A stretch of DNA of 46,770 nucleotides from a virus. Of this stretch, positions 16,528-46,770 are shown piece by piece. Location of the stretch: IMG/VR virus record IMGVR_UViG_3300032334_000156, positions 1-46,770 of that record; one strand, given 5' to 3'. Both the position numbers and the translations under genes were made by a program. The notes under the pieces were generated by a model, which was not told where the DNA came from, made no database searches, and was given only the letters and a program-made list of their open reading frames with translations. Within the stretch, counting starts at the first letter, position 1. Each line of letters starts with the position of its first letter.

Positions 16528-16672
16528 CCAAGCGTTCTTTGTCCCCGGGCTAGACACAGACAAGGTGCGAGAGATGACGCTACGCGCAAGCGTAGCTCAG
16601 CGCATGCGTCTGCTAGCTACCCCGGGGATAAAGGACGGACTCATTGGGGTGCTGTTCGTGCGTAAGCGCTGA
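16484..16672 (+). CDS. Small conserved-looking protein at the end of the early module
   Basis: A 62-residue basic protein with ATG 16484, overlapping the primase-helicase end by 44 bases. It reads like a small domain that follows replicative genes in other phages: FFVPGLDTDKVREMTLRAS then GLIGVLFVRKR. Function unknown. Its last 32 bases overlap, antisense, the 3' end of the 2780-residue gene. Confidence 0.65.
   Translation: MKLKIHYPWNQLKRNQAFFVPGLDTDKVREMTLRASVAQRMRLLATPGIKDGLIGVLFVRKR
16579..16596. terminator. Hairpin near the convergent junction
   Basis: GCTACGC (16579-16585), loop GCAA (16586-16589), GCGTAGC (16590-16596): a perfect 7-bp stem closed by a GNRA-type tetraloop. It lies inside the 62-residue gene, 45 bases before the opposing stop codon. 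As a symmetric stem it could act on both strands where early and late transcription meet. No T-run follows on the plus strand, so termination is only a suggestion. Confidence 0.3.
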
Positions 16673-22600: not shown

Positions 22601-24983
22601 ACTCACGCATCGTGTCACGAAGATTTTCAAAATGCACATCGAGTGAATTTTGTAGCCCTCCCCAAAAAGCTTGTTGATCTTCTGCATCAGACAACAAAGT
22701 TTTTGCAAACTTAACCGCATCAAATTTAGTTTCCGCAGGTGCAGCAGGCGTTTCAGTCGGCGCAGCCGGGGTCTCAACCGTAGGCGCAGTAGTTTCAGTT
22801 TGCCCCTCAAACACTAGCTCGTCGGCTGGAACAAAACTTCTATTGTTGTTGAATAAAACTTCAACATATTTCCTGCCAGATTTTGGATCTGCTACAGGTT
22901 GCCCTACAACTTCTACTGGAAAATCAGAATCCGCACTACGCCAAGTAGCTTTACCTACCGGAGCAGGTGCAGGCGTTTCAACCACGGGCGCAGCAGGTAC
23001 TTCAACCGCAGCCGGAGTCTCAACCACAGGTGCAGGTGCAGGTGCAGCGGGTTGGAGAGCAGCAAGCCGCTCAGCTAGCGCAGGGGGGATTGGTTTACCG
23101 GCGGCTTGAAGTTTAGCCACCATGCCTTCGTACATAATACGAGGGGCATCTTGTTTGCGCTGCGTAGCATCCGCAGCCGCTTCCTCTGGCGTCATTGATG
23201 TTGACGGCGCAGGTTGGAAGTTAGTCGCAGCCGGTACGACAGGCATCTGCGTAACAGTCGCCGGTCCCGGCTCAGTATCGGGTACTGCCGCAGGCTCAGC
23301 CACGTTGGGTTGGAAACCCAAGCGCATGCCACCCATCTCAAACGGGGCAGGAGCAGCGACTTCCGGTTCCGCTTGCGGCACAACTGCTGGCTGCTCAGCG
23401 CCAACTAACTGCCGCCCCCCTTTGCTATCCATGGGGGTGACAATCCCGTTCTTCTCCATCTGTTCAATCAACCGACCAGCACGGTTGTAACCGATCTTGA
23501 ATTCGCGCTGAACCGCAGAGATTGATGGTCTTCCGGGGCCGCTAACAAAAGCAACAGCCTGATCGTATAAAGGATCGACTTGAAGTGTCGGCGCTGGTGG
23601 CGGTGGAGGCGGTGGAGGCGGCGGCGTTACCGCTGTTTGCCCAGCAGGTGGGGGTGGCGGAGGTGGTGCGGGTGGTTGACCGGGAGGTGGTGATGTCTGC
23701 TGACCTGCTTGCGCTTCAGCAAGCGCTTGTTCTACCGTGCGCTGTGCAACCAACGGATCAATGTCGCCCTTGCGTTCTTTGTATTCAGACAGCAGCGGGT
23801 TGTACGTTTCTTTGCGGAACTTAGTCGCTTCCCTGCTTGCCCGTTTCCACGCATCAAACGCAGCCGGATCAGCATCTTCGTCTGGCTTTTTGCCAAGCGC
23901 GATCTTCATTTCGGTAAGCTTTTGCTTAGCCGCTAAGTAATTGTCGTTCAGACCCAGCAGGTACTCTGGGGCATTCTTAATCGCGTCCTTCTTAGTTTTC
24001 TCTTCTGCCTCAAGCCTGCGCCGTTCAGCCAGTGCTTTCTGGTTGGCTTCAACAGTCTTTGTGTACTCACCAAGTTCGTAACGACTTTGCTCTGCGCCAC
24101 GTTCAAACCGGCGACCGACACCACCAAACACACCACCAAGTAGCGCACCATCAAACGCACTATCCAAATACTCAGCGCGAGCTTTATCGTCCGAAAGACT
24201 AAGCCCCGCTTGCAAGCGCTCAAGAACTTGCTGCGCAGTTTCGGTGAGGGATTCAGCAGTTAACGCCTTGCCGGTACTCAGCGTGTAGTCAAGAACTTTT
24301 TTGCTGATTGTTTGTTCAACTACGTTTGCCGCAGCTTTGGCTGGTATGCCCAGAATCTTACTGACGCCGGGGATAAAAGCATTAGCAGCGGCATCAAGTC
24401 CAGACTGAAAGACGGCGGAACCAACAGCCGCGCCAAGATCTGTGCGTTCAAGTGGCGTGCCTTCCTTGACTTGCCGTGTGATGTTGGTTCCCGTAAACCC
24501 GGGGACACCAGCTAAAGTTCCAGCAGCACCCGCAGCAAGGAGCGCAGGCAAACCAACAGGTGCGGCAGCAGCGGCAGCACCTCCCGCTATAAGCGGTGCC
24601 AGCATTTGCGGAATAGAACTACCAATACGACCACCAAGATAATTAAGAGGGTCGTCGGCAAACCGTTCTACAGGTCGATACGCTTTTGCAGCCTCGGCTT
24701 CGCGTTCTTTTGCGTATTGCTCAGCATTGCGCATATCGCCAATACCGGCACGCGCTCCAGCCCGGGCAATGTCTGCTTTGTACTGTTCATACCCGCCAGA
24801 AAGCCCAGATAAAAGCCCCGACCCCGGCGGCGTAGTGGGAAGCGTTGGCTGTACCGGCTCCCGTGGGGTTATCCCAAACAGTTGGGGGTATGTATTTAGC
24901 GCCCTGCTCCACGCATCATCTGGAGTTTCGTTGGGGCGTACCTCTACTAACCGACCGTTTGGGAGTGGCAGATATTGGGGCAT
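16641..24983 (-). CDS. Giant multidomain polyvalent-type protein (FtsK-gamma, YkuD, HExxH)
   Basis: A 2780-residue protein, last in the late operon. In order: a short conserved-looking N-terminus (PLPNGRLVEVRPNETPDDAW); an Ala/Gly hydrophobic stretch (about 124-162) that could insert in membranes; poly-Pro linkers (about 430-467); an FtsK-gamma-like winged helix (about 467-530, SAVQREFKIGYNRAG); Ala/Pro/Glu linkers; an L,D-transpeptidase YkuD domain (about 1290-1470; H1389, SFGC with C1419); an acidic PEPEAE repeat (about 1535); an HExxH motif HEILHH (H1707-H1712); and a helical C-terminal region (about 2150-2700) resembling LPD38-type 'large polyvalent protein' domains. Such proteins are thought to be injected with phage DNA. 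Roles are inferred from domains. Confidence 0.88.
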   Translation of the reverse strand: MPQYLPLPNGRLVEVRPNETPDDAWSRALNTYPQLFGITPREPVQPTLPTTPPGSGLLSGLSGGYEQYKADIARAGARAGIGDMRNAEQYAKEREAEAAKAYRPVERFADDPLNYLGGRIGSSIPQMLAPLIAGGAAAAAAPVGLPALLAAGAAGTLAGVPGFTGTNITRQVKEGTPLERTDLGAAVGSAVFQSGLDAAANAFIPGVSKILGIPAKAAANVVEQTISKKVLDYTLSTGKALTAESLTETAQQVLERLQAGLSLSDDKARAEYLDSAFDGALLGGVFGGVGRRFERGAEQSRYELGEYTKTVEANQKALAERRRLEAEEKTKKDAIKNAPEYLLGLNDNYLAAKQKLTEMKIALGKKPDEDADPAAFDAWKRASREATKFRKETYNPLLSEYKERKGDIDPLVAQRTVEQALAEAQAGQQTSPPPGQPPAPPPPPPPAGQTAVTPPPPPPPPPPAPTLQVDPLYDQAVAFVSGPGRPSISAVQREFKIGYNRAGRLIEQMEKNGIVTPMDSKGGRQLVGAEQPAVVPQAEPEVAAPAPFEMGGMRLGFQPNVAEPAAVPDTEPGPATVTQMPVVPAATNFQPAPSTSMTPEEAAADATQRKQDAPRIMYEGMVAKLQAAGKPIPPALAERLAALQPAAPAPAPVVETPAAVEVPAAPVVETPAPAPVGKATWRSADSDFPVEVVGQPVADPKSGRKYVEVLFNNNRSFVPADELVFEGQTETTAPTVETPAAPTETPAAPAETKFDAVKFAKTLLSDAEDQQAFWGGLQNSLDVHFENLRDTMREYGVTDEYSVLEAEQIFQYGADKLKAAAEPPAAVKPAEPVKPPSITEAPASVKEKITPIKSDLGPTVSGIQRGWFYRSQPMMLGNLLVNDASYHPVKLEVTDNATYNSDMLASEGKPISIEFRHDAVSGTKQKLAPTSFGGVYRTNVVAPQAVQSVSMTTATAKNLPPEIKAALAEKFDAATSGNEITYTRKKPVEQEAAPAPAETVATTEEAPKPRVRRVAKAPAAPTPTETVEPATETQGAATEPVVQRKGKRVVKVAAPEQTPEQKEKIKKIDAAIEKAEDLRIDPETTKAKVNALTKKAEKDGLISQQDAKNILEQTKAMDVEDGIGELISALEDSKTAVSASARAATAEQTAPAEAPNTKESNSIQEALPAVGEGATRALENHYGFARGTAEFISGVSADLATYASKGLSALAKGIAKIIAKLYHALIATSFVFNATNINLPETVVITPKVVRTVVQQVMAPVPASVSARMSDSAKQAYASLYPALQARLKEANKLFIIADKPNARLFVFAPDGTPILDHKVLVGKAMGDFYRGNNEVEANRITPAGLFKMGLRDAQRSAGEMRTAGDYDFQKVFVLDKAVEGEYSTTLFHSIWLKESDAKMRAAAIAKEDPTDSRYSFGCINVDKASYKFLLDNHLTQMDGASLFVVPDNSARIQDFLFGDVAKNKTGEDILVRDTVEPATETKQVVEQEEELGPGPAPAPVEEEKGPALRGPEAPRAREREQETAEEGGPPIARSPEPEAEPEAEPEAAPAELATPPTGDPYATYPHTRLPSIRVEQLMRGFDRMLADGRITEAEHAARIDGLMARVMAAREQRRQNEYNRVMRGRERGEDWVRERLLRARRSGALEYPVVEFALWLLNANPHLATDLAISVRAANEQEVGSAGQYGSFGRLMTLFTGAADTSTAVHEILHHTERMMPADIQNGIRRQYARVFAKALADAVKDRDARIKAAIKNGTTTQNALDVVSDYMETRWNYDPFNPQNMLRVLAERVSGLKIPQDVLLSMARERALRFIAEAQTGNARAQANARSMFSSGILTRDEHYHLYNASEYWAVKATEILQKRAQAESWQERARNWLRQMLEGAKRILGLRSESALYRGLDSVIRGDGTFVSPAMLHEGSETVFDIAKAPNESFVAGKTSNVQALRNTFKGTAGLAARQKALDSYASMDEALKKGFEQGIIDSTEAGNVQFALRMGQQRNHFAGMALTNGPLQLVKDVTAKGVQYIYRSVKGANLQDVAKELNKSGIKADKLENYFTVYMVGQRANVVGWDKVNVGNPAKAKTEYNNVMQIINANPKALTAFKNAEAIYTEYNKGLINFLEQTGTITKALAQELNSKPYVPYYRVDNKSGDLLLELDKTVKPVRIGNIKDEPRLQELVGGEQKIMGIFDSAVQNTFLLTDMALRNQAIKESAFVLNKLGMASYIGKAKKNLSGKDVVRFKVNGEDHVIVIDTDQFGIPAKLIVEGMEGIKTMIPSVVRAMGFPADVLRKFVTRNPVYALRQVVRDSMNSFFTTGTSSIPVLSALKQGVALASGRSAKAQQLMESGAVSNLVFTGGKEDAQRLVEQIATGKRGWTKLIGKLDALSLAGDATTRITIYEDSIRKGMTEQEALLRTLESQNFTRRGTSSSLQMAAAVIPFLNAQLQGLDVLYRSSQGKMPFEQQMRIRSKFFQRALLMSASTIAYAAYMEDDERYKKAKPEERYGNWFIVNPMDPKGDLIRVPIPFEIGLIFKAVPEAIYNTLKGNDTAENAARGIFKLLEQSNPFTPVPAAFKPGLEVFLGTSLFGGPIESARELAVEKSERVRPGTSAGAELLGKANMLSPVQIDHLIRGHFGALGMLISDLAAVLPFGRGQQVQERTKGLSEMRVIGTLFQPAEGRGVIDEAYRRMQEIDMARKTYKKMLAEGRTEDANAYLASHRSDINLSQMAGAVENRIGKLAELRRNIEARPSLTTEQKDAQIKNIIAAQNKLAQTMLSAYARTAPQ
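20344..20380 (-). repeat. 12-bp tandem repeat coding for an acidic PEAE linker
   Basis: The plus strand shows about three copies of a 12-base unit (ttccggttcagc) coding on the minus strand for Glu-Ala-Glu-Pro units. It lies between the L,D-transpeptidase and HExxH parts of the giant protein and is probably a flexible linker that varies by slippage. Confidence 0.75.
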
Positions 24984-24986
24984 GGT

Positions 24987-27068
24987 TTAGCGTGGTGCGT
25001 AAAGATCGGTTACAGCCGGAGTTGTTGTGGGAACTTTTACCCGCGTATCAAATCGAGGGTCGTTTGAAATAACTCCCGGTCCCGGCCTGATCACACTTGG
25101 AATACCACCACCCATTAAAAGAGGAGCCGCTTGCCCTGCTGGCAAATTCATTACCGGAGGTCTGTCTTGTGCTCGCATCTTTCTTACGTCAGCCATTGTG
25201 TACAACGGTATGTGTTGCGTTGGGTCCATTATCCCCTTGTTCTGCGCAACCACTGAACTGTTGAGCAACACAAGCATTTCGTCGTCCGACTTACGGTGCG
25301 CACGTTCGTACCCAACTTTAATATCCCCATCACCCAAGATTCTTGCAAGCGCAATCATGTCGGGTTCTTTTTTGAGTTGTGCCAACGCAACCCGAGTGCT
25401 GTTGTTGGAAATGTGTATATTTGTTTCGGCAGCTATTCCTGCTCGCCTGTCATCGGCGGCTACGCTAGCGGAGTTCTTAGCTATATCAGAAGCAACTTGT
25501 GCGCTGACATTGAGTCGGGTCATTAGTGTATCGGTCAATTTGCTCTGGTAGTCACTAAGCGCTTTTGCTTGCTCAACTTTAAAGCCCATCGCGTCTTTTG
25601 CACGACCGTACTCTTCAGCGCGCCGACGCTCTTTCTCCAGCATCTCAAACTTGTCCAAGTCTTTGCTTGCCGCTTTGAAGTCTTTGAGCGCTTCTTTGTG
25701 CTGTTCAAATCCTTTGCCCAGTCCGCCAGCCACATTCTCCAAGAATCGGTGTGATTTGCCGGACGCAATAGCCAGCCCAGCATTTATCAAGAACATTGGC
25801 CCAAGCGTTTCTTTTTCTGCTGCCAATTCTTTTTTGGTCTTATCAATGTACTTAGCGCCAGCAGTCTCTTCGGCTTTTTCTAGTTGAGGCAATCCGGCAA
25901 ACGCCTCGGAAGCAGTTTTCTGGCTTGTTTCAAACGCGCGTTTTGCGTCCGCCAAATACCTTTCAGCCGTACCTTGATCCATGTACACGCCAGCTTGTTC
26001 TTTAGCTTTTTCTGGACTAATGCCTTGTGCGCTAAGTAACGCTGTTACACCAGCAGAAGGCTTGAGCAGGCTGATGCCTTCACCGGGCGGGGGTTTCTTC
26101 ACAATGCTGCGCGTGCCTTCGTCTGTAACTGGTGTTGGCGGAGGTGGTGGTGATGTTGGCGCTGGTTGATACCGCGCGTTCTGCATGTTGAAAATAAACT
26201 GCCCCAGCGCTGGCGAGTTAGCCGCAGCTTCCGCAATGTTTGTTTGTGTTGGTGCTTTGCCACTACTTGGCGAAACTTCGCGGCTTACAAAAGGGTTGCG
26301 GTCATTAGGCCCAACAGCCGGTGTTTCACCAGTCATCCGTGGGTTTGGAATCATTGGTGGATTAGCCGACGCTTCATACGCGGACGGTATCTCGCGGCTT
26401 AAAAGTGTTGGGACACCAACACTGCTAGTGGTGGCGGGAGTGAACGGCAAATTTATTTGCGGTGTTTGCGTTTTTCGCTGTTGAATTGCCGCTTCAATTG
26501 CAACGTCCGACAGACCAAGTTCTCTGCCTTTTGCACGAATCTCTGCTTCGGTTGCATCGCCGCCAAAGGCCATATGGACTTCTCCACCATCAGCGTACCC
26601 AGCGATCCCGCCGTCAGCCATGCCTTGCAGATTCGGAGCGGGCAACCCAGCGATACCTTGCGGTCCCGGCGCGGGTCCGGGGGGTGGAGCAGACGGTGGC
26701 ATCTGCATACCCGGAGGCGGACCTTGCGGTGGCATACCCTGCGGTGGCATCTGTCCTTGTGGCCCACCGGGTGGTGGCATTGGCGCTCCACCTTGCTGTT
26801 GCGCCCCCATACCGGGAGGTGCCATACCTTGAGGATTAAGCGCGGCTACAGCCTGCGGAATAACTTTCGGTTGTTCCTGCCCACTCATCAACGCTTGCAA
26901 GCGCTGCATCTGTTCTTTGCGATCCTTGTCCACTTGCATGGCAAGGCTAACGTAGATGGCGTTGTCTTGATGCGCCGCAGCAAACTGTTGAAGCTGCGGG
27001 CCGTCCATCTTGGACAGCATGGCGTGGACTTTGGCGATATCCGGGTGGGCGACGCTTTGCAAAGACAT
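24987..27068 (-). CDS. Virion-associated protein, probable ejection protein
   Basis: A 693-residue protein. The N-terminus is helical; residues about 78-140 are Pro/Gly/Met/Gln-rich; residues 150-171 carry a triple Gly-Gly motif (MADGGIAGYADGG, then MAFGGD). The middle, about residues 370-560, is a long charged coiled coil interrupted by a hydrophobic GPMFLINAGLAIASGK. The C-terminus is Pro-rich. Size, coiled coil and position just before the giant protein fit an internal virion (ejection) protein, but no named family is recognised. ATG 27068 is 9 bases after the upstream gene's stop. Confidence 0.6.
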   Translation of the reverse strand: MSLQSVAHPDIAKVHAMLSKMDGPQLQQFAAAHQDNAIYVSLAMQVDKDRKEQMQRLQALMSGQEQPKVIPQAVAALNPQGMAPPGMGAQQQGGAPMPPPGGPQGQMPPQGMPPQGPPPGMQMPPSAPPPGPAPGPQGIAGLPAPNLQGMADGGIAGYADGGEVHMAFGGDATEAEIRAKGRELGLSDVAIEAAIQQRKTQTPQINLPFTPATTSSVGVPTLLSREIPSAYEASANPPMIPNPRMTGETPAVGPNDRNPFVSREVSPSSGKAPTQTNIAEAAANSPALGQFIFNMQNARYQPAPTSPPPPPTPVTDEGTRSIVKKPPPGEGISLLKPSAGVTALLSAQGISPEKAKEQAGVYMDQGTAERYLADAKRAFETSQKTASEAFAGLPQLEKAEETAGAKYIDKTKKELAAEKETLGPMFLINAGLAIASGKSHRFLENVAGGLGKGFEQHKEALKDFKAASKDLDKFEMLEKERRRAEEYGRAKDAMGFKVEQAKALSDYQSKLTDTLMTRLNVSAQVASDIAKNSASVAADDRRAGIAAETNIHISNNSTRVALAQLKKEPDMIALARILGDGDIKVGYERAHRKSDDEMLVLLNSSVVAQNKGIMDPTQHIPLYTMADVRKMRAQDRPPVMNLPAGQAAPLLMGGGIPSVIRPGPGVISNDPRFDTRVKVPTTTPAVTDLYAPR

Positions 27069-27077
27069 GGTTCTACC

Positions 27078-29399
27078 TTATCCCATCTGAGCGATTGCAA
27101 GTGCAGGCAAACCGCGTGGCTGACGAATCATACCGCCTTCTGCCTTAAACAAATTACCTAACTGCGCGGCACCAATCGCAGCCGTACCAAAACCCGCAAG
27201 CTGCGAAGCCATACTTGGAGCTTGCTGATACTGCGCAGCGGTTGTTTGAGAAAGCGGCAAGCCGCGAAGGATGTTTGAGAACTGTCCGATCTGCTGGATT
27301 GGGTAGTCCCGTTGATTAACAAAGTCGTTGTAGTTCTGGGCAAGCTGTTGGTTTTGATAGTTCTGCGCTTGCTGCCCCATTTGGTTCTGGGCGTTGTATA
27401 TGTTCAGACCTTGCTGGTTGTACAAGTTACTCAAGTTGCCGTAGTTCTGCATGCCCTGCATGCCCGATTGCAACGCTTGCAATCCATACCCCGCACCGTA
27501 CTGCCGCGCCTGTTCGTTTAACTGATTGGCGGCTTGCCCGTACTGCGCAGCGTTTGCTGCGCCAGCCATCTGCTGCCCGTAGCCGTACTGATTAGCAAGC
27601 TCTTGTTGTTGCTGCGTAGTCAGCCCAGCCTGTTGATTGGCTAACGCGGCTTGCAGGGCTTGGTTGTTATACAACTGTTGCACACCAAGATTGGCGGCAA
27701 GGTTCTGCTGCCCTGTAGTCAGCCCAGCCTGCTGGTTTGCAAGGTTGGCCTGCTGCTGCATTTGCGCGTTCTGTAGGTTAGCCCCCTGCGTTAGCTGACT
27801 CTGCGCCAGTCCGTACTGTCCGGCCAAAGCTTGATTAGCAAGCGCGGTTTGGTTTGCTGCCTGTTGATTAGCAGCGTTTGCTGCCTGATTAAATTGCCCC
27901 TGCTGTAGACCGTACTGCGCGCCATATTGCTGATTAGCCAGTGCCGCCTGTTGCAAATTAGCAAGGTTCTGCATAGCCATCTGCTGATTCATCTGACCTT
28001 GCTGCAAGCCATACTGCGACCCGTACTGCTGGTTATTAGCCGCCGCTTGTTGTGCAAGCTGAGCGTTCTGAAGCGCAAGAGCCTGATCCATCTGACCTTG
28101 TTGTAGGCCGTACTGTCCTTGTAGTCCTTGGTTAGCAAGCTGCTGTTGCTGCGCCAACTGCGCATTTTGTAAAGCGGTGTTATACGCCTGCTGTTGGTTG
28201 AACTGTCCGGTCTGCATTCCGGCTTGTTGATTAGCCAGCGCTGCCTGTAGTCCTGATTGTTGGTTTAACTGCTGCGCGGTTAACCCTGTCTGCGCACCAA
28301 GACCCTGCGTCTGGAGTAACGCACTTAAATTCTGGACGCCAGTCTGTTGTTGCACCTGTTGGTTAGCCAAGGCTGCTTGAAGCGCTGCTTGCTGCTCAGT
28401 ATTAAATTGCCCTTGTGCTGACTGAAATGCTGACTGCAACCCCTGCGCTTGAATGTCGCCCTTCTGTGTTGCCAGATTGCGAGCAGCTTCAGCGTTCTCA
28501 ATAGCTTGCCGACTACCACCAAAAGCACCCGATTGCGCAAACCCAGCACCGCGCTTAGTCGATTGAATGTCTGCTTGTCGCTGAGCTTCGCGCTGTTGAA
28601 TGTCCACCACATTCTGCATGTAGGGAGACATATACGCTTGGGCTGATCCGGGCTGGGTAAATGATCCAGTCCCGACATCCCGCGCGGCCTGCATTTGCAA
28701 TTGTTGCAGTGGCAGCGCACTGACCCGCTCAGCATTCGCCGTTTGATAACCAATGCCTTGTGGAGAGTAGTTAAGCTGCTGCCCCGTGTATGTTGGAATA
28801 GCCGCTAAACCAGTGCGTGCGGCTTGTGCCGCAGACATAGTGGGCACATCACCAAGCTTTGCCGCCGTTCCAGTCTTCCCAGTAACAGTGGGAGCCGTTC
28901 CCATCTGCGCGGCCTTCATTGTTTGGGCTTCGGCTGTTGGGGAAACCCCCAGTCGTGCCGCAGTTGCTTCAGCACCCGTTACATCTTCGGGCTGTTGCAT
29001 TTGAAAGAACTTCGCAGCCTGCGGGTTTACTGCCTGAAAGTTAAAGTCGGTGGGTGTGTACGCACTTTGCGACTGATACTGGTTACCGTACGCGGTTGGA
29101 GCATAGCTTGATGTACCGGCCTGCGTAGCCAAGTTGTACATGCTCTCAAGCGAGTTGCCCGCTTGCGCACCTAGCCCCATGGTTCTAAGCGCGGTGTATG
29201 CTTGCTGCGACAGTGGATCTACATTGGCAAAACGCTGACCATAGTAGAGCGGATACTGTTTAATCCCTGTGGGTTTACCAGTCGCATCAACATTAAAGAG
29301 CGCCCCCTGCGCCAAGCCGAGCATGCTCGTAACATAGGGTTCCGCATATGTCGGTATTGATGTCTGTGTTTGCTGAATTACGGTTGGATCGGTCGCCAT
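27078..29399 (-). CDS. Gln/Ala/Asn-rich repetitive virion protein
   Basis: A 773-residue protein. The first 330 residues look ordered (YAEPYVTSMLGLAQGALFN near the start). Residues about 330-640 are built from degenerate repeats of the type LANQQAG and QYGLQQGQMNQ, a low-complexity Gln/Ala/Asn-rich helical or amyloid-like region. The C-terminus has hydrophobic GTAAIGAAQLGNLF and a Gly-Gly motif (KAEGGMIRQPRG). Similar proteins occur near ejection proteins of uncultured aquatic phages. Probably a structural or ejection protein; function unproven. Confidence 0.6.
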   Translation of the reverse strand: MATDPTVIQQTQTSIPTYAEPYVTSMLGLAQGALFNVDATGKPTGIKQYPLYYGQRFANVDPLSQQAYTALRTMGLGAQAGNSLESMYNLATQAGTSSYAPTAYGNQYQSQSAYTPTDFNFQAVNPQAAKFFQMQQPEDVTGAEATAARLGVSPTAEAQTMKAAQMGTAPTVTGKTGTAAKLGDVPTMSAAQAARTGLAAIPTYTGQQLNYSPQGIGYQTANAERVSALPLQQLQMQAARDVGTGSFTQPGSAQAYMSPYMQNVVDIQQREAQRQADIQSTKRGAGFAQSGAFGGSRQAIENAEAARNLATQKGDIQAQGLQSAFQSAQGQFNTEQQAALQAALANQQVQQQTGVQNLSALLQTQGLGAQTGLTAQQLNQQSGLQAALANQQAGMQTGQFNQQQAYNTALQNAQLAQQQQLANQGLQGQYGLQQGQMDQALALQNAQLAQQAAANNQQYGSQYGLQQGQMNQQMAMQNLANLQQAALANQQYGAQYGLQQGQFNQAANAANQQAANQTALANQALAGQYGLAQSQLTQGANLQNAQMQQQANLANQQAGLTTGQQNLAANLGVQQLYNNQALQAALANQQAGLTTQQQQELANQYGYGQQMAGAANAAQYGQAANQLNEQARQYGAGYGLQALQSGMQGMQNYGNLSNLYNQQGLNIYNAQNQMGQQAQNYQNQQLAQNYNDFVNQRDYPIQQIGQFSNILRGLPLSQTTAAQYQQAPSMASQLAGFGTAAIGAAQLGNLFKAEGGMIRQPRGLPALAIAQMG
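27480..28380 (-). repeat. Degenerate Gln-rich coding repeats
   Basis: Within the 773-residue gene, units resembling QYGLQQGQ and LANQQAGLQ recur many times with imperfect spacing. On the plus strand this appears as repeated gct/ctg/ttg-rich blocks. Boundaries are approximate. The degeneracy argues for an old, selected repeat rather than a recent expansion. Confidence 0.6.
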
Positions 29400-29408
29400 G
29401 ACTATTCC

Positions 29409-30662
29409 TTATGCTGGCAGCAGACGTTCTGCGTTTGTGTCGGTGGCTACTTTGTTTTTGCCAACCGTTTTGCGCCGTGCACGCTGAACACGGTCCATCA
29501 TTGCGTATAGTTTACGCGCTCCTGCCTCAGTTGAGCCGTTGCCAATCTCAGACACGATACGGGCCGGAACAACAAACTCCCCATCGGCTAGCCGCGCGGG
29601 TTGGCGATCTCCAATAGTTGCCGGGATGTTGTCAGACACGCCATCACCGGGGCCGCGAAGCAAACGCCCACCATCAGAGTAGCCGCCCAGTGAACCCAGA
29701 CCACCTTGGTTAAACGCCACGACACCCCCTGTTGCACCAGTTGGCGTTGTTCCAGCTTTGTATGGGGTAAGCGCTTCCCACGTATCGTTAAAGTACCGGC
29801 GTTCTCCAGTACCACTGTACGGCTCAGCGTTTCGTTGGCGTGTAAGCCTATATGGGCGGATGTACGAATCGGGCGTCAGCGAATCCAGCGTTGGCATTGG
29901 TGTTTTTTGCCCTTTACCAATAGCAGCCATTACAGGAAGCGCGGCCACTCCCGCACCAACGAGCGGATTACCACCACCCAATGTACTGAGCGGAGCCTTT
30001 GTGAACTTGTCCAGAAAACTTTGACTTGCGGCACTGCTTGCGGCACTTCTTGCGCCGGAACTGGCACCTTCCAAAGAACCCCAATTTTCAGTTGGGGCTA
30101 TATAAGAAGGCACGCCTTCAACAATCGGGGCTGTAGTGCCCGAGCTAAAAAGATTGCCAAAAAACCCGGAGTTGGAACCAGCACCTGTGCCAGCCCCTGC
30201 GCCTGCGCCTGCACCAAAAGAACCGGCAAGACTAGCGCCACCATATGCGCCCAGACCAGCCATCAAACCGTTCTTCAAACTGCCGCTCTGTATACCCGTG
30301 AACCCGCCAACCAACCCTGCGGCTAGAAGCGGTCCCACACCGGGGATCATAGCCAGTCCCGCCCCTGCAATTGGCGCAAGGATTGGGTTGTTTGCAATAG
30401 ACCCCGCAAGACCAGTGCCTTGGCTTGTGTTAATCCCCAGCAGATCGTCTGCTACCGTCTTGCGAAGAAGCCCTTCTTTGCCGGTGTAGTTGTTAATATT
30501 AAAAGGGTTCCAATACTCCGGCAACCCAGTCTTGGGGTTGATCGTGCCTGACCCGCCAAGGGATTTAAGCAGCGCCGCTTCTTGGGGATTGATATGCGCA
30601 AGGATTGTGTCTCCGCCTCGACCTTGGGCGGCTAGCTGCTGGGCAAGATTGTGTAGGCTCAT
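29409..30662 (-). CDS. Gly-rich membrane-active virion protein
   Basis: A 417-residue protein. Residues about 92-160 are hydrophobic and Gly/Ala-rich (ILAPIAGAGLAMIPGVGPLL, then GAGAGAGTGAGS), as in proteins that enter the membrane during DNA injection. Residues from 317 carry Gly-Gly motifs (FNQGGLGSLGGYSDGG), then a conserved-looking C-terminal unit: GPGDGVSDNIPA, ADGEFVVPARIVSEIG, ARKLYAMMDRV. That unit recurs in virion proteins of many uncultured phages. Likely an ejection or tail-tip protein. Confidence 0.65.
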   Translation of the reverse strand: MSLHNLAQQLAAQGRGGDTILAHINPQEAALLKSLGGSGTINPKTGLPEYWNPFNINNYTGKEGLLRKTVADDLLGINTSQGTGLAGSIANNPILAPIAGAGLAMIPGVGPLLAAGLVGGFTGIQSGSLKNGLMAGLGAYGGASLAGSFGAGAGAGAGTGAGSNSGFFGNLFSSGTTAPIVEGVPSYIAPTENWGSLEGASSGARSAASSAASQSFLDKFTKAPLSTLGGGNPLVGAGVAALPVMAAIGKGQKTPMPTLDSLTPDSYIRPYRLTRQRNAEPYSGTGERRYFNDTWEALTPYKAGTTPTGATGGVVAFNQGGLGSLGGYSDGGRLLRGPGDGVSDNIPATIGDRQPARLADGEFVVPARIVSEIGNGSTEAGARKLYAMMDRVQRARRKTVGKNKVATDTNAERLLPA

Positions 30663-33728: not shown

Positions 33729-34451
33729 ATGTACGTGTATATTTGGAAAGATGCGGCAGAAGTTCCATTCTACGTTGGGTTCACAAAAAATAAACGGCGC
33801 AGCAACCCTCGGAACAACGGTAACAGAAACTGGCTTTGCAAACAAAAACTTGCTGCTGTAGGTGTAGAAAACGTAATTGTTGAGCTTCGTCCAGTCTTTT
33901 CTGTAGAAGCGGGTACGGCGCTTGAGTGCAGTTTGATATCCACAATAGGGCGTGTTCAAACGGGAAACGGTCCGTTGACCAATTTGACTTCTGGCGGGGA
34001 TGGCGTTCATCCACCAACTCCTGAGCACATTGAAAAGTTGCGGCTAGCCATGCTAGACCCAAACCACCCCGTACGAAGCCCGGAAGCAAGAGCCAAACAA
34101 CGCATGCGCATGCAAGATGCGGACATTAAAGCGCTGTTTTCTGGAAACGCAAACCCTGCCAAAAAACCAGAAGTACGCGAAAAGCTAAAGGCTAAATGGG
34201 CAGATCCTGCATACAAAAATGCGCGGATTGCAGAAAAGATTGGACGCCCCATCCACACGGAAGAAGAAAAACAGCGCCGCCGAGAAGCGCTCCTTGACCC
34301 AAACAACCCCATGCGCGATTTCCACAAGGCACTAAACACAGACCCCACAATTGCCGCCAAACGAGCAGCAACCCTAAGAACGCCAGAACAAAGGGCAAGG
34401 CAGTCTGAAGCTATGCGACGGTACTGGGCCAAACGCAAAGAGTCCATATAG
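33729..34451 (+). CDS. GIY-YIG homing endonuclease with NUMOD3-like repeats
   Basis: A 240-residue site-specific DNA endonuclease. The N-terminal domain has the GIY-YIG signature in variant form (YVYIW, then FYVGF), a candidate catalytic Glu in ALECSLIS (E66), and the closing NLTSGGDG. About five helical basic repeats follow (TPEHIEKLRLAM, SPEARAKQRMRM, KPEVREKLKAKW, TEEEKQRRREAL, TPEQRARQSEAM), matching NUMOD3-type DNA-binding modules. It lies on the opposite strand to all neighbours and fits exactly between two late genes, as expected for a free-standing mobile gene. Confidence 0.9.
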   Translation: MYVYIWKDAAEVPFYVGFTKNKRRSNPRNNGNRNWLCKQKLAAVGVENVIVELRPVFSVEAGTALECSLISTIGRVQTGNGPLTNLTSGGDGVHPPTPEHIEKLRLAMLDPNHPVRSPEARAKQRMRMQDADIKALFSGNANPAKKPEVREKLKAKWADPAYKNARIAEKIGRPIHTEEEKQRRREALLDPNNPMRDFHKALNTDPTIAAKRAATLRTPEQRARQSEAMRRYWAKRKESI

Positions 34452-40219: not shown

Positions 40220-40657
40220 TTAAGCGATCCTGATAATTGCTGAAGTGTTGGTTACTGCCGGAAACTGCACAGTAAACGTAGTTGTCGATGTCTTATCTGC
40301 GCCAAAATCCAACACACAGATGGCAGGATTTGTAGTCCCATTAGCCAAATAGATCAACGCTCCCCGCGCAGTAACCGCAGTAGTCCAGACGGCGTTATCA
40401 AATGACCAGTACGCAGTCGTGCCGGAATTACCAATAGTAGGGACTTGGCTAATAACAAGGACTTGCCCCCCAGCGGTATACCCCGAGGCAGAAACCTCGC
40501 CTGTGGAAGTGTACGCAGTGGTAGTCGCATCTAGTGTGGCGGCGTTGGTATACAACGCAATCTTGAAGACCTGCGTCGTGCCCGTGTTGAAGTTAAACGT
40601 CCCGCTAGGAAGCCCCGTCTTAAACGTGTTGGTTGTCCAATTGCCGGTAAACGCCAT
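40220..40657 (-). CDS. Conserved virion-type protein
   Basis: A 145-residue beta-rich protein: WTTNTFKTGLPSGTFNFNTG, FKIALYTNAATL, STGEVSASGY and a C-terminal VLDFGADKTSTTTFTVQFP. Such proteins recur in late regions of aquatic phages next to adaptor and fibre genes. Its start overlaps the adaptor stop (TGATG). Function unknown. Confidence 0.78.
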   Translation of the reverse strand: MAFTGNWTTNTFKTGLPSGTFNFNTGTTQVFKIALYTNAATLDATTTAYTSTGEVSASGYTAGGQVLVISQVPTIGNSGTTAYWSFDNAVWTTAVTARGALIYLANGTTNPAICVLDFGADKTSTTTFTVQFPAVTNTSAIIRIA

Positions 40658-41307
40658 CAGGTCACCTTCTGACGATACTGACCAGAACGGTAAGCATCTT
40701 GACGCTCAAGTCCGTCACCCAACCGTTTAGCGAGAGCAAGCGCTTCTTTGTACTTGCCATCATACAAAGCCATCATGTCCTGCTCACCTTTCATGAAACT
40801 GTAGGCTTCAACAAGCGTACCGTACAACAGCACCGTATCAAAGTTATCGCCCAACCAAGTATTAACCGCAGTAACAATCGACGTTGGATAATAAAAGTAA
40901 TGCAACTCTACGTTGTATATGGCGTCTGGCGTTGGTCCAAGAATAAAAGTCAGCTCGGCTTCGTTAGTAGACTGCGGACCAAACAGCGCGTAGTACTTTG
41001 GGGTAGCTGTGTCTGTTGGCTGCGGATACGCTTCGCGGATGAAGTTAACATCTTTATTCAGCAGGTACGAATACTCCCCACCAGTGGGGTACACAGCCAT
41101 CGAGTACACAGACAAAAAGTCACCGGGGCAAGCAAGATACTTATTTCCCGTTGCCGTCACCCCGGTCACGTTTTTGCGCAGCGACGGGAACTGGATCGTG
41201 TTGTAAATGCGTTGTTCAGCCTGCTGAATGAACGTGTTCATATCAGTCGTCTGGAACGTGTTCTCCGTATAGTCGGAGACCGCAGTTACAAGCGCGGCAT
41301 AGTTCAT
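40657..41307 (-). CDS. Head-tail adaptor-like protein (SU10 adaptor type)
   Basis: A 216-residue protein. The N-terminus MNYAALVTAVSDYTENTF, then FIQQAEQRIYN, and the C-terminal LYGTLVEAYSFMKGEQDMMALYDGKY fit the family of short-tailed phage adaptor proteins that sit under the portal. Expected role: joining portal and tail. The stop and start overlap both neighbours. Confidence 0.8.
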   Translation of the reverse strand: MNYAALVTAVSDYTENTFQTTDMNTFIQQAEQRIYNTIQFPSLRKNVTGVTATGNKYLACPGDFLSVYSMAVYPTGGEYSYLLNKDVNFIREAYPQPTDTATPKYYALFGPQSTNEAELTFILGPTPDAIYNVELHYFYYPTSIVTAVNTWLGDNFDTVLLYGTLVEAYSFMKGEQDMMALYDGKYKEALALAKRLGDGLERQDAYRSGQYRQKVT

Positions 41308-41567
41308 GCCATCGGACCCCGAGCCATCGTGCCTTTAGTGGCGCAGCCATTACCGCGAGTTTGAATGCCTGCGGTTTTAGTCGTTTTGTCCGGTCCGTTG
41401 TTGTACATCCCAACACTCATACGCATGGTATTGAGACTTCCAAGATCAGACGGTTTGCCGGGGTTAGTGCTAATCCCAACAGTTTTGCCCGACATGTCGT
41501 GGGGTTCTGCGTAAACGGAAGCAGGGCCAACTTCTTTGCCGCCTCGTTTCATGCTGAACTTAGCCAT
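41304..41567 (-). CDS. Small conserved phage protein with TRGNGCATKGT end
   Basis: An 87-residue Gly/Met/Lys-rich protein ending AGIQTRGNGCATKGTMARGP, a C-terminal motif seen repeatedly in small phage proteins near adaptor genes. Function unknown, probably virion-linked. It overlaps the adaptor gene by 4 bases. Confidence 0.75.
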   Translation of the reverse strand: MAKFSMKRGGKEVGPASVYAEPHDMSGKTVGISTNPGKPSDLGSLNTMRMSVGMYNNGPDKTTKTAGIQTRGNGCATKGTMARGPMA

Positions 41568-41763: not shown

Positions 41764-42153
41764 CTATGTCGTCACAACCGTTACTGTACCCAATTGCACC
41801 TGTAAAACCAAGTTGTTAGGCGTGAGGGCAGTGTCAAAAAAACTTGCCCCACCAACCGGGTTCCACCCCCACTGAAAAATCCTGCTGCCGCCGCCCGCAT
41901 AACCGTCTGCCAAAAGACCAGACACTTGATAAGTGTTGTCTTTACGCGGGTCGCGCACCCCTTGCGGATCATCAACAGGATACATGCCAAGCTGTAACTG
42001 AGGCTGATCTGGGTCCCAGCAACTAGGGCAAACCAAAAGGTTGTATATCTTGGTCTTGATTACTTCCTTCTTGAGCATGCTTAGCTTGAAGCCAAACCCG
42101 CACCTATCGCATACGGCAATTGAATTCTTGCCGGATGAAAACCTATTGCCCAT
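41764..42153 (-). CDS. Zinc-ribbon virion-region protein
   Basis: A 129-residue protein. ATG 42153 overlaps the previous stop (TAATG) and is preferred to upstream alternatives. CDRCG and CPSC form a likely zinc site around an aromatic/basic loop (GFGFKLSMLKKEV). The middle has DPDQPQL and VRDPRKDN, a recurring pattern in phage head/tail regions. C-terminal half is beta-rich. Structural or assembly role is likely. Confidence 0.75.
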   Translation of the reverse strand: MGNRFSSGKNSIAVCDRCGFGFKLSMLKKEVIKTKIYNLLVCPSCWDPDQPQLQLGMYPVDDPQGVRDPRKDNTYQVSGLLADGYAGGGSRIFQWGWNPVGGASFFDTALTPNNLVLQVQLGTVTVVTT

Positions 42154-43085
42154 TACGGACCATACCCAATAAACATCTGACGCGGCACCAAACGAAGCGC
42201 CGCCGTTTCGCGGTCTTCCTGCGCAGCCAACTCCCAAGCCTCGTCGTACTGCATCTTTAGTACTTCAAGCCTATTGATGCCGTCAGGAATTTTCAGCGCC
42301 ACGTAGTAAGCAAGCCCTGCGGCCATGCAAGGAATAAACCGAAACGGCACATCCATGACGTTAACACCACCGCCTGCATCCTGCGTGCGACGCATGCGCC
42401 AGTAAACAAATTGATACGTAGTAACCCCATCCGGTGTGGGCCAAACTGTGATGGCAGGAACTTGCTGCCAGTAGACAGTGGCACCGGCTGTGTGCGCTGC
42501 GGCTGTCGTGTTCTGTTGTGCCCGGAAGCAGTTGTACAGCGTGGTGCCGCTGATATATCCGTAATTGATGATCTCGGAGTCGATCTTCACAAACCCAGCA
42601 GCGGGCAGATTATCGACCGAACTAACCGTAATCGTTGTGTCAGTGCTAGTGATTGTCGTGCTCAGCGTGGCAGACACTGGAGAAGTCTGCGCGTTATAGC
42701 GCTGCACCCACACTTGGATCGGGCGACCTTGTGACAATTTGTTTGGCAACGTAGCGTACGTTGATACGCTGATGCGGGTGATCGTCAGGTCAGACTGGTT
42801 AGATGTGCTGTTTGCATTTGTGCGAATTACATGCTCAAGCAGATCAACCGTGTCGTTGGGCAGCGCGTAGGTATTCTGCCCTTGCACCAAGGTGATCGTG
42901 CCCTGCTCAAACGTCCACATGTTGATGCCACGGTTTGCCCAGTCAGCAAACATGAGGTTAAGCGAACGCCGCGCTGTGCGCAGATCGTAACCCGAGCGCA
43001 ACTCCGAGCCAGCACGCTCAAAAGCTTCCTCGACCAGTTCAGTCAGGTCGAGGTTAAATGAGGTTTGGCCGGATGTGTTTGCCAT
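42153..43085 (-). CDS. Tail tubular/adaptor-type virion protein
   Basis: A 310-residue protein. The N-terminus LVEEAFERAGSELRSGYDLR, then SLNLMFADWANRGINMWTFE, and ENTYALP-like GQNTYALPNDTVDLLEHVIR belong to a group common in short-tailed uncultured phages. An Ig-like insertion (about residues 138-205) precedes a C-terminal helical part (ALKIPDGINRLEVLKMQYDE). It probably joins portal and tail machinery; the exact family is uncertain. Confidence 0.75.
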   Translation of the reverse strand: MANTSGQTSFNLDLTELVEEAFERAGSELRSGYDLRTARRSLNLMFADWANRGINMWTFEQGTITLVQGQNTYALPNDTVDLLEHVIRTNANSTSNQSDLTITRISVSTYATLPNKLSQGRPIQVWVQRYNAQTSPVSATLSTTITSTDTTITVSSVDNLPAAGFVKIDSEIINYGYISGTTLYNCFRAQQNTTAAAHTAGATVYWQQVPAITVWPTPDGVTTYQFVYWRMRRTQDAGGGVNVMDVPFRFIPCMAAGLAYYVALKIPDGINRLEVLKMQYDEAWELAAQEDRETAALRLVPRQMFIGYGP

Positions 43086-43750
43086 TAGTAGCTGCTAATA
43101 AAGTTTTGCTGCTTGGGGCCAATTGGCGTATACCCATTTGGGTATTGGTTCTGTGTGTTGGTAGACAACAGGCTAGGCAATCCCGACTGCTGCGGACTCC
43201 CACCGACAGACACACTTTGCGGCTGCGTAGGACCGGGGTTGTACATGCGTTGACCGTTAGGAGGTTGCTGTTGACCAAACGGATTCTGAAACTGCATTGG
43301 TTGCGGAGCAAAACCACCAAACACATTACCGCTCTGTTGGTTGTAACCCCCGCCATTTTGTGGCTGCACTTGTTGTGGTTGTGTTTGTGGCCCAAACGGA
43401 TTATTAAACTGCGGAGTTGAGTCCGTCATACCGCCAAATGCGTATCGCTTACCTTCTGTGCGAGTTATGGGGTCCGTGGCTATCTGGTTAAACAGTGTGT
43501 ACACCTCATTTGGCGTATCAAAATAATTGTAGCCTTTGATTTCGTTGTTTTCTTTTGGTAACGAGCGATCTGGGGTTATCGTGTTCTGTATAAACGGAGT
43601 AAAGGAATTAATCAGGGGAGCCAACCACCCAGCGTTACTAGTGATTTGTGGCGACGGCTTTACAGGAGCAGCAGCACTCGTATCGGCTTGGAGCGCGGAT
43701 TGCATCGCGTTGTTGTTACGCAAGGAATCTAAAATATCGCTAAAAAACAT
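43085..43750 (-). CDS. Gln/Pro/Asn-rich hypothetical virion-region protein
   Basis: A 221-residue protein. A helical N-terminus (FFSDILDSLRNNNAMQSALQ) is followed by a hydrophobic piece and a motif RYAFGGMTDS near residue 110, then a disordered Gln/Pro/Asn/Gly-rich half with repeated NPFG units. No family recognised. The Gly-Gly motif resembles those in the ejection-type proteins. Confidence 0.6.
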   Translation of the reverse strand: MFFSDILDSLRNNNAMQSALQADTSAAAPVKPSPQITSNAGWLAPLINSFTPFIQNTITPDRSLPKENNEIKGYNYFDTPNEVYTLFNQIATDPITRTEGKRYAFGGMTDSTPQFNNPFGPQTQPQQVQPQNGGGYNQQSGNVFGGFAPQPMQFQNPFGQQQPPNGQRMYNPGPTQPQSVSVGGSPQQSGLPSLLSTNTQNQYPNGYTPIGPKQQNFISSY

Positions 43751-44401: not shown

Positions 44402-44611
44402 TTAGCAACTGCCGCCGCCAGCCATTTTGACCATCATGCCTTTGGTCTTGCCGCGTTGTGCGCAACCATCAGCACGCGAAGAAGCAGAGCCGCCGCCTGC
44501 CATTTTCTTGGGCTTCTTGATTGGTTTGGTTGGGCCTTCGTAGTCGATAGGGGGGTTGCCCATGTCGGCTGTGTAGATGTCTGCTTCGCCGGGTTTCTTT
44601 TCAAGCGCCAT
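44402..44611 (-). CDS. Small protein with C-terminal SASSRADG motif (copy 1)
   Basis: A 69-residue protein. ATG 44611 (MALEKKPGEADIYTADMG) is 10 bases after GGAG. The middle is Pro/Lys-rich; the C-terminus carries GGSASSRADGCAQRGKTKG, shared with two neighbours, and ends MAGGGSC. The cysteine tail could anchor or cross-link. Function unknown. Confidence 0.75.
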   Translation of the reverse strand: MALEKKPGEADIYTADMGNPPIDYEGPTKPIKKPKKMAGGGSASSRADGCAQRGKTKGMMVKMAGGGSC

Positions 44612-44613
44612 AA

Positions 44614-44958
44614 TTAACAAGCTCCGCCTTTTTTAAGTAGTTTACCTTTAGTCTTGCCCTTCTGGGCAATCCCGTCTGCACGTGAAGAAGCGGACCCGCC
44701 CTTCTTCATACCCATCATCTCGGACTTTTCGTGTTTGATCATGGCGGCGGGAGCACCCTTCTTCTTCATGAAGGCCACTTCTTTACCAACCATTTTCTTT
44801 GACTCAGCCATATCACCACCTTTTGAAAATTTACGACCCTTGTCAGCCGCTGCAAAGTCCTTGCCCACGGACTGAGGGACGCCAGCTTTCTTGGCAAAAC
44901 TGGGGCTGTGGGCTACAGCCTCCATGAAATTGTGCTGCTTCTTCGACGTACTAGGCAT
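44614..44958 (-). CDS. Small basic protein with C-terminal SASSRADG motif (copy 2)
   Basis: A 114-residue protein. The N-terminal part, SKKQHNFMEAVAHSPSFAKK then GVPQSVGKDFAAADKGRKF, is a pattern known from many phages. Lys/Met-rich helices follow, then GGSASSRADGIAQKGKTKG and an end KKGGAC. The N-terminal pattern shows this is a real gene; function unknown. Confidence 0.82.
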   Translation of the reverse strand: MPSTSKKQHNFMEAVAHSPSFAKKAGVPQSVGKDFAAADKGRKFSKGGDMAESKKMVGKEVAFMKKKGAPAAMIKHEKSEMMGMKKGGSASSRADGIAQKGKTKGKLLKKGGAC

Positions 44959-45187
44959 GATGGTCCATCAGCTTATCAATCTTGGCTTCAAGCCGATCAA
45001 GCCTGTCCATTACCCGATTGATGTCGGCGTGAACTTCGGACTTGGTAACGTACTCTTTGGCAATCTCTTCGCGGGTCTTGTTTAGCAGCACTTGCAGGCG
45101 CTGCATCTCATCAAAAACGCTCTTGAGGAAAAATCCAACCACGCTGATTCCAACCGAAAGAACTGCGTTCCAGATCGTGTGTTCCAT
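44951..45187 (-). CDS. TM plus coiled-coil small protein
   Basis: A 78-residue protein with one membrane segment (NAVLSVGISVVGFFLKSVF) and a charged coiled coil (about residues 35-78, DRLDRLEAKIDKL). ATG 45187 overlaps the preceding TGA (TGATG). It could be a second holin-like or membrane-anchoring protein outside the main lysis cassette. Confidence 0.7.
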   Translation of the reverse strand: MEHTIWNAVLSVGISVVGFFLKSVFDEMQRLQVLLNKTREEIAKEYVTKSEVHADINRVMDRLDRLEAKIDKLMDHHA

Positions 45188-45633
45188 CACACAAACCGCC
45201 CTTTGGTTTTGCCGCGCTGCGCGCAGCCGTCTGCACGGGAAGAAGCGCTGCCACCTTTCGCCATCTTCTTGACTGCACCACCTTTAGCCATCTTCAGGGG
45301 GTTATCTTTGAGCTTCAACACCCTGTCCGTAGCGTACAGACTTGGCTCTTTTTCAAGATCTTGGTCAGACATCCCCGCACGTTGCTTTGCGGTTTGATAC
45401 CGAGATTCGCGGCGTGCAATATCTTCAGCAATCATCTCGTTTTTTTGATTAGCCGGGTGCCCAAGAACGAGGCCCATCTTATCTATAATACGGCTACCCA
45501 AAGGACGTTCACGCTCACTCGTAGCCGATTCTAGTTCTGCCTGTTGTTTTGCGCGTTCTTTGCGTTTTTCGTCTGGCGTTAAATTGCCAAACCTAGCCAT
45601 CCGCGTTTCGTCATCAGCAATAGGTCTTGCCAT
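45187..45633 (-). CDS. Hypothetical protein with C-terminal SASSRADG motif (copy 3)
   Basis: A 148-residue, highly charged helical protein (FGNLTPDEKRKERAKQQAEL at the start). The C-terminus has AKGGAVKKMAKGG followed by SASSRADGCAQRGKTKGRFV, the same motif as in two downstream genes. No family recognised. Probably virion or DNA associated. Confidence 0.75.
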   Translation of the reverse strand: MARPIADDETRMARFGNLTPDEKRKERAKQQAELESATSERERPLGSRIIDKMGLVLGHPANQKNEMIAEDIARRESRYQTAKQRAGMSDQDLEKEPSLYATDRVLKLKDNPLKMAKGGAVKKMAKGGSASSRADGCAQRGKTKGRFV

Positions 45634-45891: not shown

Positions 45892-46770
45892 TTATGCCTG
45901 TGCTTCTTTCCAAGACAACCGAGCAGACAGCGTGATTGCCGTTGCCGTTAGTGGTGTGACGCACACATACAGAATGTCTGGACCATCTGGGTACGTCTGA
46001 GCGTATGACGTTGGAACCGTGGCAACAGTTCCGCCACCAAGGATAGAGTTACCCAAGTCACGGACTTGCGACAAATCCAACGTGGTCTGACCGTTAGAGT
46101 TTGTAAATGCTGCCGCTACTGACTCACCGCCAGACAACGTAACTGTATTAGTGGTATTGGTTGCTACTTGCGCCAAAGACGAAGTATAAGCGCCAGAACC
46201 CTGAGTAGTTGGACTACGCCAGTTTGCAATACTAAACGCCGCAGATGGATACCCATTCAGCACAAGATTGACCAACAACGGACCAGTTGCGTAAATACCC
46301 AATTCAAACAACTGTAACTGCATACGGTTGATGATTTCTTGCGCTCCAAGAAGACCAATCTGCCCGTTAGAAACAGATGGGGCAATCCGAATTGCAAGAA
46401 TTGGCGTAACCTGTGTTATCGACGTTGTAGTCGTCATCTGGATAGGGTTACCGAAGTTAAAGATCAGCGACTTGTCGTCGTTGAACTGCCCATCCATAAT
46501 TACCGACGAACCCCAGTGCGATAAAGATGGAGTCGTATCGGGCGTTACAAGTTCAATAGCCGTTGGAGCAGTTGCGCTTAAAGTAAACGTAGTTGCTGAC
46601 GCCCCACCAGTTACACCTCTGGTTAAACCCGTCAGCACGTTGTTGCTGTTTCCAGTGTAAGAAACATATTCAACAGCCGAGCCATCTTGAACCTTTACCG
46701 TACCAGATGGAGGAAACAGCGTGGAATTCAGCACGGACATTGACGTTACATTGCCTGACAACAACGTAGC
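45892..46770 (-). CDS. Virion-type protein, 5' end cut by the window edge
   Basis: The frame stays open to base 46770, so the N-terminus is outside the window. The visible 292 residues are Ser/Thr/Val/Asn-rich and beta-structured, beginning with an Ig-like segment (GTVKVQDGSAVEYVSYTGN, LTGLTRGVTGG) and later FELGIYATGPLLVNLVLNGY. It looks like a tail, capsid-fibre or decoration protein; exact family not recognised. Its stop is 2 bases from the next start. Confidence 0.7.
   Translation of the reverse strand, partial: ATLLSGNVTSMSVLNSTLFPPSGTVKVQDGSAVEYVSYTGNSNNVLTGLTRGVTGGASATTFTLSATAPTAIELVTPDTTPSLSHWGSSVIMDGQFNDDKSLIFNFGNPIQMTTTTSITQVTPILAIRIAPSVSNGQIGLLGAQEIINRMQLQLFELGIYATGPLLVNLVLNGYPSAAFSIANWRSPTTQGSGAYTSSLAQVATNTTNTVTLSGGESVAAAFTNSNGQTTLDLSQVRDLGNSILGGGTVATVPTSYAQTYPDGPDILYVCVTPLTATAITLSARLSWKEAQA

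What the first reader, a model, noticed from the sequence alone, without database searches (positions are those of the whole stretch)
44440..45257. Three neighbouring proteins share a C-terminal GGSASSRADG-x-AQ-[RK]-GKTKG motif
The motif occurs at about 44442-44502, 44648-44703 and 45201-45257, in proteins whose remaining sequences are unrelated. Two of them end in a short tail with a terminal Cys. A shared tag on different proteins suggests a common sorting, packaging, cross-linking or DNA-binding signal. I know of no name for it.
Basis: seen in the sequence. Interest (0 to 1): 0.72.

Follow-up and report, generated by a model that had tools for sequence, protein, structure and literature searches.

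The report
Shared C-terminal tag on phage proteins
Many otherwise unrelated small proteins of a large, mostly uncultured phage group end in the same 15-17-residue peptide, always encoded between the capsid genes and the neck/tail genes, which suggests an undescribed address label that docks a changing set of accessory proteins onto or into the virus particle.

Summary
Three minus-strand proteins (148, 114 and about 70 aa) share a C-terminal tag, (G)GSASSRADG[C/I]AQ[R/K]GKTKG, and their bodies are unrelated. The coding pattern occurs three times in the window and never in shuffles. Their bodies fall into 83 groups. First and second codon positions are fixed while third positions vary freely, so a protein signal is under selection, not copied DNA. 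Tagged genes sit in one conserved cassette: downstream of portal/GroES/scaffold/major-capsid genes and upstream of two SU10-adaptor-type neck genes. A second, possibly related tag (GIKxRGTGAATKGxMARGPMA-end) ends one protein between the adaptor genes; here it is 41304-41567. In cellular genomes the pattern appears only in phage contigs binned into MAGs, plus one chimera. Pfam, PHROGs, NCBIfam, the PDB and the held literature have no record of the tag. One cultured relative, Planktothrix phage Pag-Yong1, carries a variant at the same locus. Best reading: a C-terminal virion-docking or packaging signal, working like the T4 capsid-targeting sequence but not a member of it. This is inferred; no virion data exist.

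The parts
45187..45633 (-). Tagged protein A, 148 aa; unique charged body plus C-terminal tag GGSASSRADGCAQRGKTKGRFV
   Evidence: no significant Pfam/PHROG/PDB match
45200..45237 (-). Tag core coding sequence, copy A (RADGCAQRGKTKG)
44614..44958 (-). Tagged protein B, 114 aa; N-terminal SKKQ helical module (phrog_16759, E 1.6e-20) shared with phiKZ 165.1 and with head-protein PHROGs, variable linker, C-terminal tag ending KKGGAC
44645..44682 (-). Tag core coding sequence, copy B (RADGIAQKGKTKG)
44402..44611 (-). Tagged protein C, 69 aa from ATG (72 aa from TTG at 44620); tag followed by MMVKMAGGGSC
44439..44476 (-). Tag core coding sequence, copy C (RADGCAQRGKTKG)
41304..41567 (-). Type-2 tagged protein, 87 aa, ending GIQTRGNGCATKGTMARGPMA; family of at least 582 relatives in viral contigs; 3-11 genes downstream of the type-1 tagged genes in all 155 gene pairs
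42153..43085 (-). Neck protein with SU10_adaptor domain (PF24175), downstream border of the tagged-gene cassette
40657..41307 (-). Second SU10_adaptor-type neck protein (PF24175, E 4e-24), just downstream of the type-2 tag gene
45892..46770 (-). Virion structural protein (phrog_5838), cut by the window end; upstream border of the cassette here

Best explanation
The peptide (S)SASxRADG[I/C]Ax[R/K]GKT[K/R]G[K/R][M/F/I][V/C/I]-COOH is a C-terminal docking signal. It is recognised by one conserved component of the virion or assembling prohead in this phage group (capsid, scaffold, portal or adaptor). It recruits a changing set of small, mostly disordered accessory proteins onto or into the particle, much as the T4 capsid-targeting sequence recruits diverse internal proteins. 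The type-2 tag (RGTGAATKGxMARGPMA-COOH) would be a sister signal. Shown here: the tag, its C-terminal position, its modular use on unrelated bodies, protein-level constraint, and the fixed place of the genes in the virion gene block. Inferred: that the tagged proteins are in the virion, that the tag binds a protein partner, and which one.
For: 186 tagged proteins in 120 loci plus the window and MAG contigs: 151 end exactly 3 aa after the core and 181 within 17 aa; C-terminal position was not part of the search pattern. Bodies fall into 83 BLAST groups. In the alignment of 120 tagged proteins only the tag columns are conserved; GG, S and K, which the pattern did not demand, are also above 90%. 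Entropy per codon position is 0.48, 0.48 and 1.58 bits. None of 244 tagged genes has a same-strand neck/tail gene upstream and 243 of 244 have no head gene downstream; order is type-1 then type-2 tag, same strand, in 155 of 155 pairs. Of 22 loci fetched by the type-2 protein alone that span the cassette, 20 have a strict type-1 tag and all have a strict or loose one; background for the loose form is 21 of 2042. The SKKQ module occurs without the tag in phiKZ 165.1 and inside a 'structural protein' of phage 121Q. AlphaFold gives low confidence over the tag end, as expected for a peptide that folds on binding. In T4, diverse internal proteins share only the targeting sequence (PMC3012670).
Against: No proteomics or structure shows a tagged protein in a virion. 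Phage DSL-LC04 has a 90.7% identical capsid protein to a tagged relative (L016) and no tag was found in either stretch read of its genome, so the tagged proteins are dispensable for that capsid. No partner was identified: the conserved virion genes are shared by tagged and untagged relatives. Gene position alone does not prove virion location.
Confidence: 0.42

Rival explanations
1. The tag is a basic, flexible nucleic-acid-binding tail (RG/GK-rich) that lets small proteins coat or condense phage DNA, perhaps to neutralise charge during packaging, without a protein receptor.
For: Median net charge +6 in the last 30 residues and basic bodies; disordered prediction; RG/KG content; T4 internal-protein lysines contact packaged DNA (PMC3012670).
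Against: D, G, A and T are invariant, S is about 90% and the C-terminal end is strictly placed; a charge-driven tail would be expected to drift in sequence and position.
Confidence: 0.2
2. The tag targets the proteins to a host or phage-made factor in the infected cell (chaperonin, protease, membrane, replication compartment) and is unrelated to the particle.
For: A C-terminal position suits recognition by a cellular factor; these phages carry a GroES-like gene in the same operon.
Against: Genes are always inside the head-to-neck block; untagged relatives have the same GroES gene.
Confidence: 0.17
3. The tag is a by-product of gene birth: C-terminal coding segments are shuffled or copied among small late genes by recombination and have no common partner.
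For: Within a contig, synonymous differences (0.50) are below the 0.65 expected for independent codons, and tag identity is higher within than between contigs (0.82 vs 0.77), so some copying occurs; three proteins carry two tags in tandem.
Against: Synonymous sites differ widely while amino acids are fixed; conserved C-terminal end; a cultured cyanophage with a diverged genome keeps it at the same locus.
Confidence: 0.11
4. The terminal Cys and Lys-rich ends cross-link tagged proteins to each other or to the capsid.
For: In the SKKQ family the last Cys is conserved in at least 90%; two of the three window proteins end in Cys.
Against: Only 88 of 254 tagged proteins end in Cys.
Confidence: 0.06

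Closest known systems
T4 capsid-targeting sequence (CTS) of internal proteins
   Same: Short conserved peptide on otherwise diverse small phage proteins; works as an address label for the head (PMC3012670)
   Different: From general knowledge the CTS is N-terminal and cleaved off by the prohead protease; this tag is C-terminal, has a different sequence, and no processing is known
Encapsulin cargo-loading (targeting) peptides
   Same: From general knowledge: short C-terminal peptide on unrelated cargo, recognised by an HK97-fold shell
   Different: Different sequence; encapsulins are cellular compartments; no shell binding is shown here
SKKQ N-terminal module (phrog_16759; phiKZ 165.1; N-termini of phrog_22033 and phrog_25121 head proteins; 121Q gp51)
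   Same: Window protein B carries it (E 1.6e-20); it is itself modular and linked to virion proteins
   Different: It is the body of only one tagged family; phiKZ 165.1 and 121Q gp51 lack the tag
HTVC023P-type, CRP-901/902-type, Pag-Yong1 and DSL-LC04 phages
   Same: Same portal, GroES, scaffold, Mu-gpT-like capsid and SU10-adaptor order as the tagged contigs
   Different: Only Pag-Yong1 has a type-1 tag (IGRDGCAKRGRTKGRFI-end). HTVC023P gp51 ends in a type-2-like RGGGAAVRGMGFKGVF; no tag was found in the stretches read of HTVC027P, CRP-902, QDWS535, Caulobacter RW and DSL-LC04

Membership tests
T4-type capsid-targeting sequence | Conserved short peptide on diverse phage proteins with unrelated bodies | tested here: met
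   83 body groups share one tag
T4-type capsid-targeting sequence | Located at the N-terminus | tested here: not met
   Tag is C-terminal in 181 of 186 proteins
T4-type capsid-targeting sequence | Directs the protein into the prohead and is removed by the prohead protease | not testable with these tools
   Needs virion proteomics
Encapsulin cargo-loading peptide | C-terminal peptide on cargo proteins | tested here: met
   Position only
Encapsulin cargo-loading peptide | Binding to an HK97-fold shell | not testable with these tools
   A Phage_capsid_4/Mu gpT-type capsid gene lies nearby in relatives, but no binding test was possible
Any Pfam, PHROGs or NCBIfam family | Tag matched by a curated profile | tested here: not met
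   Tag peptides and 120 tagged proteins: only phrog_16759/22033/25121, 12 members each and in protein B confined to the SKKQ body, plus isolated weak hits
   No body similarity
Pelagiphage/roseophage/Pag-Yong1-like group (portal, GroES, scaffold, Mu-gpT-like capsid, SU10 adaptors) | Same gene order around the tagged genes | tested here: met
   The window itself ends before its capsid gene, so its place in the group rests on the neck genes and on synteny with the other tagged loci

The most novel reading that the evidence does not exclude
A general C-terminal virion-loading code: two related C-terminal peptides (type 1 and type 2) are read by a conserved head or neck component and let a phage group swap its packaged accessory or injected proteins freely.
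Probability: 0.35. Interest if true: 0.82.

Novelty: new variant of a known kind. Interest (0 to 1): 0.64.

Why it matters
If the tag loads proteins into virions, every tagged gene in metagenomes becomes a predicted packaged or injected protein, and its uncharacterised body a candidate for early host takeover or counter-defence, as with T4 internal proteins. It would also give a simple sequence rule for finding such cargo in uncultured phages, and a small handle for putting foreign proteins into these capsids. The tag is not named in any family library or paper searched here.

Tried and rejected
Gene duplication: rejected by body comparison. Mobile or copied DNA element: rejected by free third codon positions and 68-72% DNA identity in the window, though mild within-genome sharing remains. 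Cellular use of the tag: rejected; of 4 contigs in about 85,000 species, three have the phage gene order and the fourth (L127, Patulibacter MAG) is an assembly chimera in which an acyltransferase frame runs into a phage tag at the contig end. Finding the tag in cultured phages by tblastn with 29-37-residue peptides gave nothing; the Pag-Yong1 variant was found only through capsid and portal relatives. Sequence searches for the type-2 protein, proteins A and B, the tag alignment, the capsid protein and the adaptor gave no usable PDB match. AlphaFold of the type-2 family: disordered, pLDDT 59. Foldseek of protein B: no significant PDB match; in BFVD its best matches are other uncharacterised phage proteins. 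Profile comparison of type-1 and type-2 tags: score 13.4 against a column-shuffled null of 7.7 +/- 1.8 (1 of 100 as high), suggestive only. A common partner by gene presence/absence: none stands out.

Full report
Observation. Three minus-strand ORFs at the right end of the window carry the motif at their C-termini. The degenerate DNA pattern for R-[AG]-D-G-x-A-x-[RK]-G-x-T-[KR]-G occurs exactly three times in the 46,770 bases and in none of 100 shuffles. With the tags removed, the three bodies have no detectable similarity.

How common it is. They and the window hold 186 tagged proteins. Because the pattern fixes several residues, conservation of those residues proves nothing by itself. What the pattern did not ask for is informative: 151 of 186 proteins stop exactly three residues after the core and 181 within 17; upstream S-A-S and G-G, K after the second G, and a hydrophobic residue next to the end recur. 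The bodies fall into 83 groups. In an alignment of 120 of them only the tag is conserved. Codon-position entropies are 0.48, 0.48 and 1.58 bits, so the conserved thing is the peptide.

An estimate free of that bias. The neighbouring 87-aa gene (41304-41567) ends in a second tag and was used alone to fetch 80 loci. Of the 22 that span the region from head genes to the adaptor, 20 have a strict type-1 tag and all 22 a strict or loose one, usually one to three genes each; the loose form occurs at the end of 21 of 2042 other proteins. The second tag, GIKxRGTGAATKGxMARGPMA-end, has its own invariant residues R, G, G, A, G. It can be aligned with the first (RaDGiAqrGk over rGtGaatkG), but the statistical support is modest.

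Gene order. In this phage group the order is portal, GroES-like protein, acidic scaffold-like protein, two small proteins, Mu-gpT-like major capsid protein, small structural proteins, tagged genes, SU10-adaptor gene, a small gene, the type-2 tag gene, a second SU10-adaptor gene, then tail and fibre genes. The portal, scaffold and small structural assignments rest on relatives' annotation and position rather than Pfam. Type-1 genes precede the type-2 gene on the same strand in 155 of 155 pairs. None of 244 type-1 genes has a same-strand neck/tail gene upstream and only one has a head gene downstream; one locus outside that count, L125, has a further tagged gene between two neck genes.

Who carries it. 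In one genome per species for about 85,000 prokaryotes, a slightly stricter pattern is found in four contigs, all from MAGs or uncultured bins: three have the phage gene order and one is a chimera. Capsid and portal searches give cultured relatives: HTVC023P and HTVC027P (SAR11), CRP-901/902 (Roseobacter), Pag-Yong1 (Planktothrix), DSL-LC04, Alcaligenes phage QDWS535 and Caulobacter phages. Pag-Yong1 UMO75986 (308 aa), between the minor capsid and portal-adaptor genes, ends YASGGMIGRDGCAKRGRTKGRFI, a diverged type-1 tag at the same place. HTVC023P gp51 ends RGGGAAVRGMGFKGVF, resembling type 2. DSL-LC04, whose capsid is 90.7% identical to that of tagged locus L016, has no tag in the two stretches that together cover its record, so tagged proteins come and go on nearly the same particle.

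Modularity of one body. Protein B starts with an SKKQ module: three short helices with pLDDT about 80-90, followed by less confident helices and a disordered end. The module almost alone is phiKZ 165.1 (58 aa), and it begins a 263-aa protein annotated as structural in phage 121Q. In 40 relatives from this group the module and the C-terminal G-K-T core stay fixed while the middle varies in length and sequence.

Mechanism. [quoted passage not shown] I therefore favour a C-terminal virion-docking or loading signal (0.42). That tagged proteins are in particles, and what the tag binds, are inferences. A DNA-binding tail (0.20), a cellular target (0.17), recombination by-product (0.11) and cross-linking (0.06) remain open.

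Novelty. No Pfam, PHROGs, NCBIfam or PDB entry describes the tag and the held open-access literature does not contain its sequences. It works, if the reading is right, like a known kind of signal, but it is not a member: the T4 signal is N-terminal (general knowledge).

Noticed in passing
window 41304-41567: A very common 87-aa protein of this phage group, ending in GIKxRGTGAATKGxMARGPMA, has at least 582 relatives in viral contigs and no PHROG or Pfam match above noise.
   Followed up: yes
window 24987-30662, 43085-43750 and the tagged proteins: A phi-x-x-GG motif (YADGG, MAKGG, YASGG and the like) is about 4.6 times denser in tagged proteins than in other proteins of the same loci (11.5 vs 2.5 per 1000 aa) and also appears in the window's large late proteins; it may be a second shared signal.
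   Followed up: partly
L127 1-2003 (JALRCL010000652.1, Patulibacter MAG): Likely assembly chimera: an acyltransferase frame runs directly into a phage C-terminal tag and a phage-like gene start at the contig end.
   Followed up: yes
L006, L008, L078: Single proteins with two tandem copies of the tag.
   Followed up: no
L212 1315-1542 (phage DSL-LC04): An untagged relative has a 75-aa protein at the cassette with an N-terminal RGMGCATRGGGAV and a C-terminal KMGGSACK, as if pieces of both tags were rearranged.
   Followed up: no
window 33729-34451, + strand: A 240-aa ORF on the opposite strand inside the late block, beginning MYVYIWKDAAEVPFYVGFTKNKRRS, looks like a GIY-YIG-type homing endonuclease by eye; not searched.
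   Followed up: no
window 16641-24983: A 2780-aa late protein, a candidate large polyvalent or internal virion protein (part matches phrog_9854 and phrog_18222).
   Followed up: no
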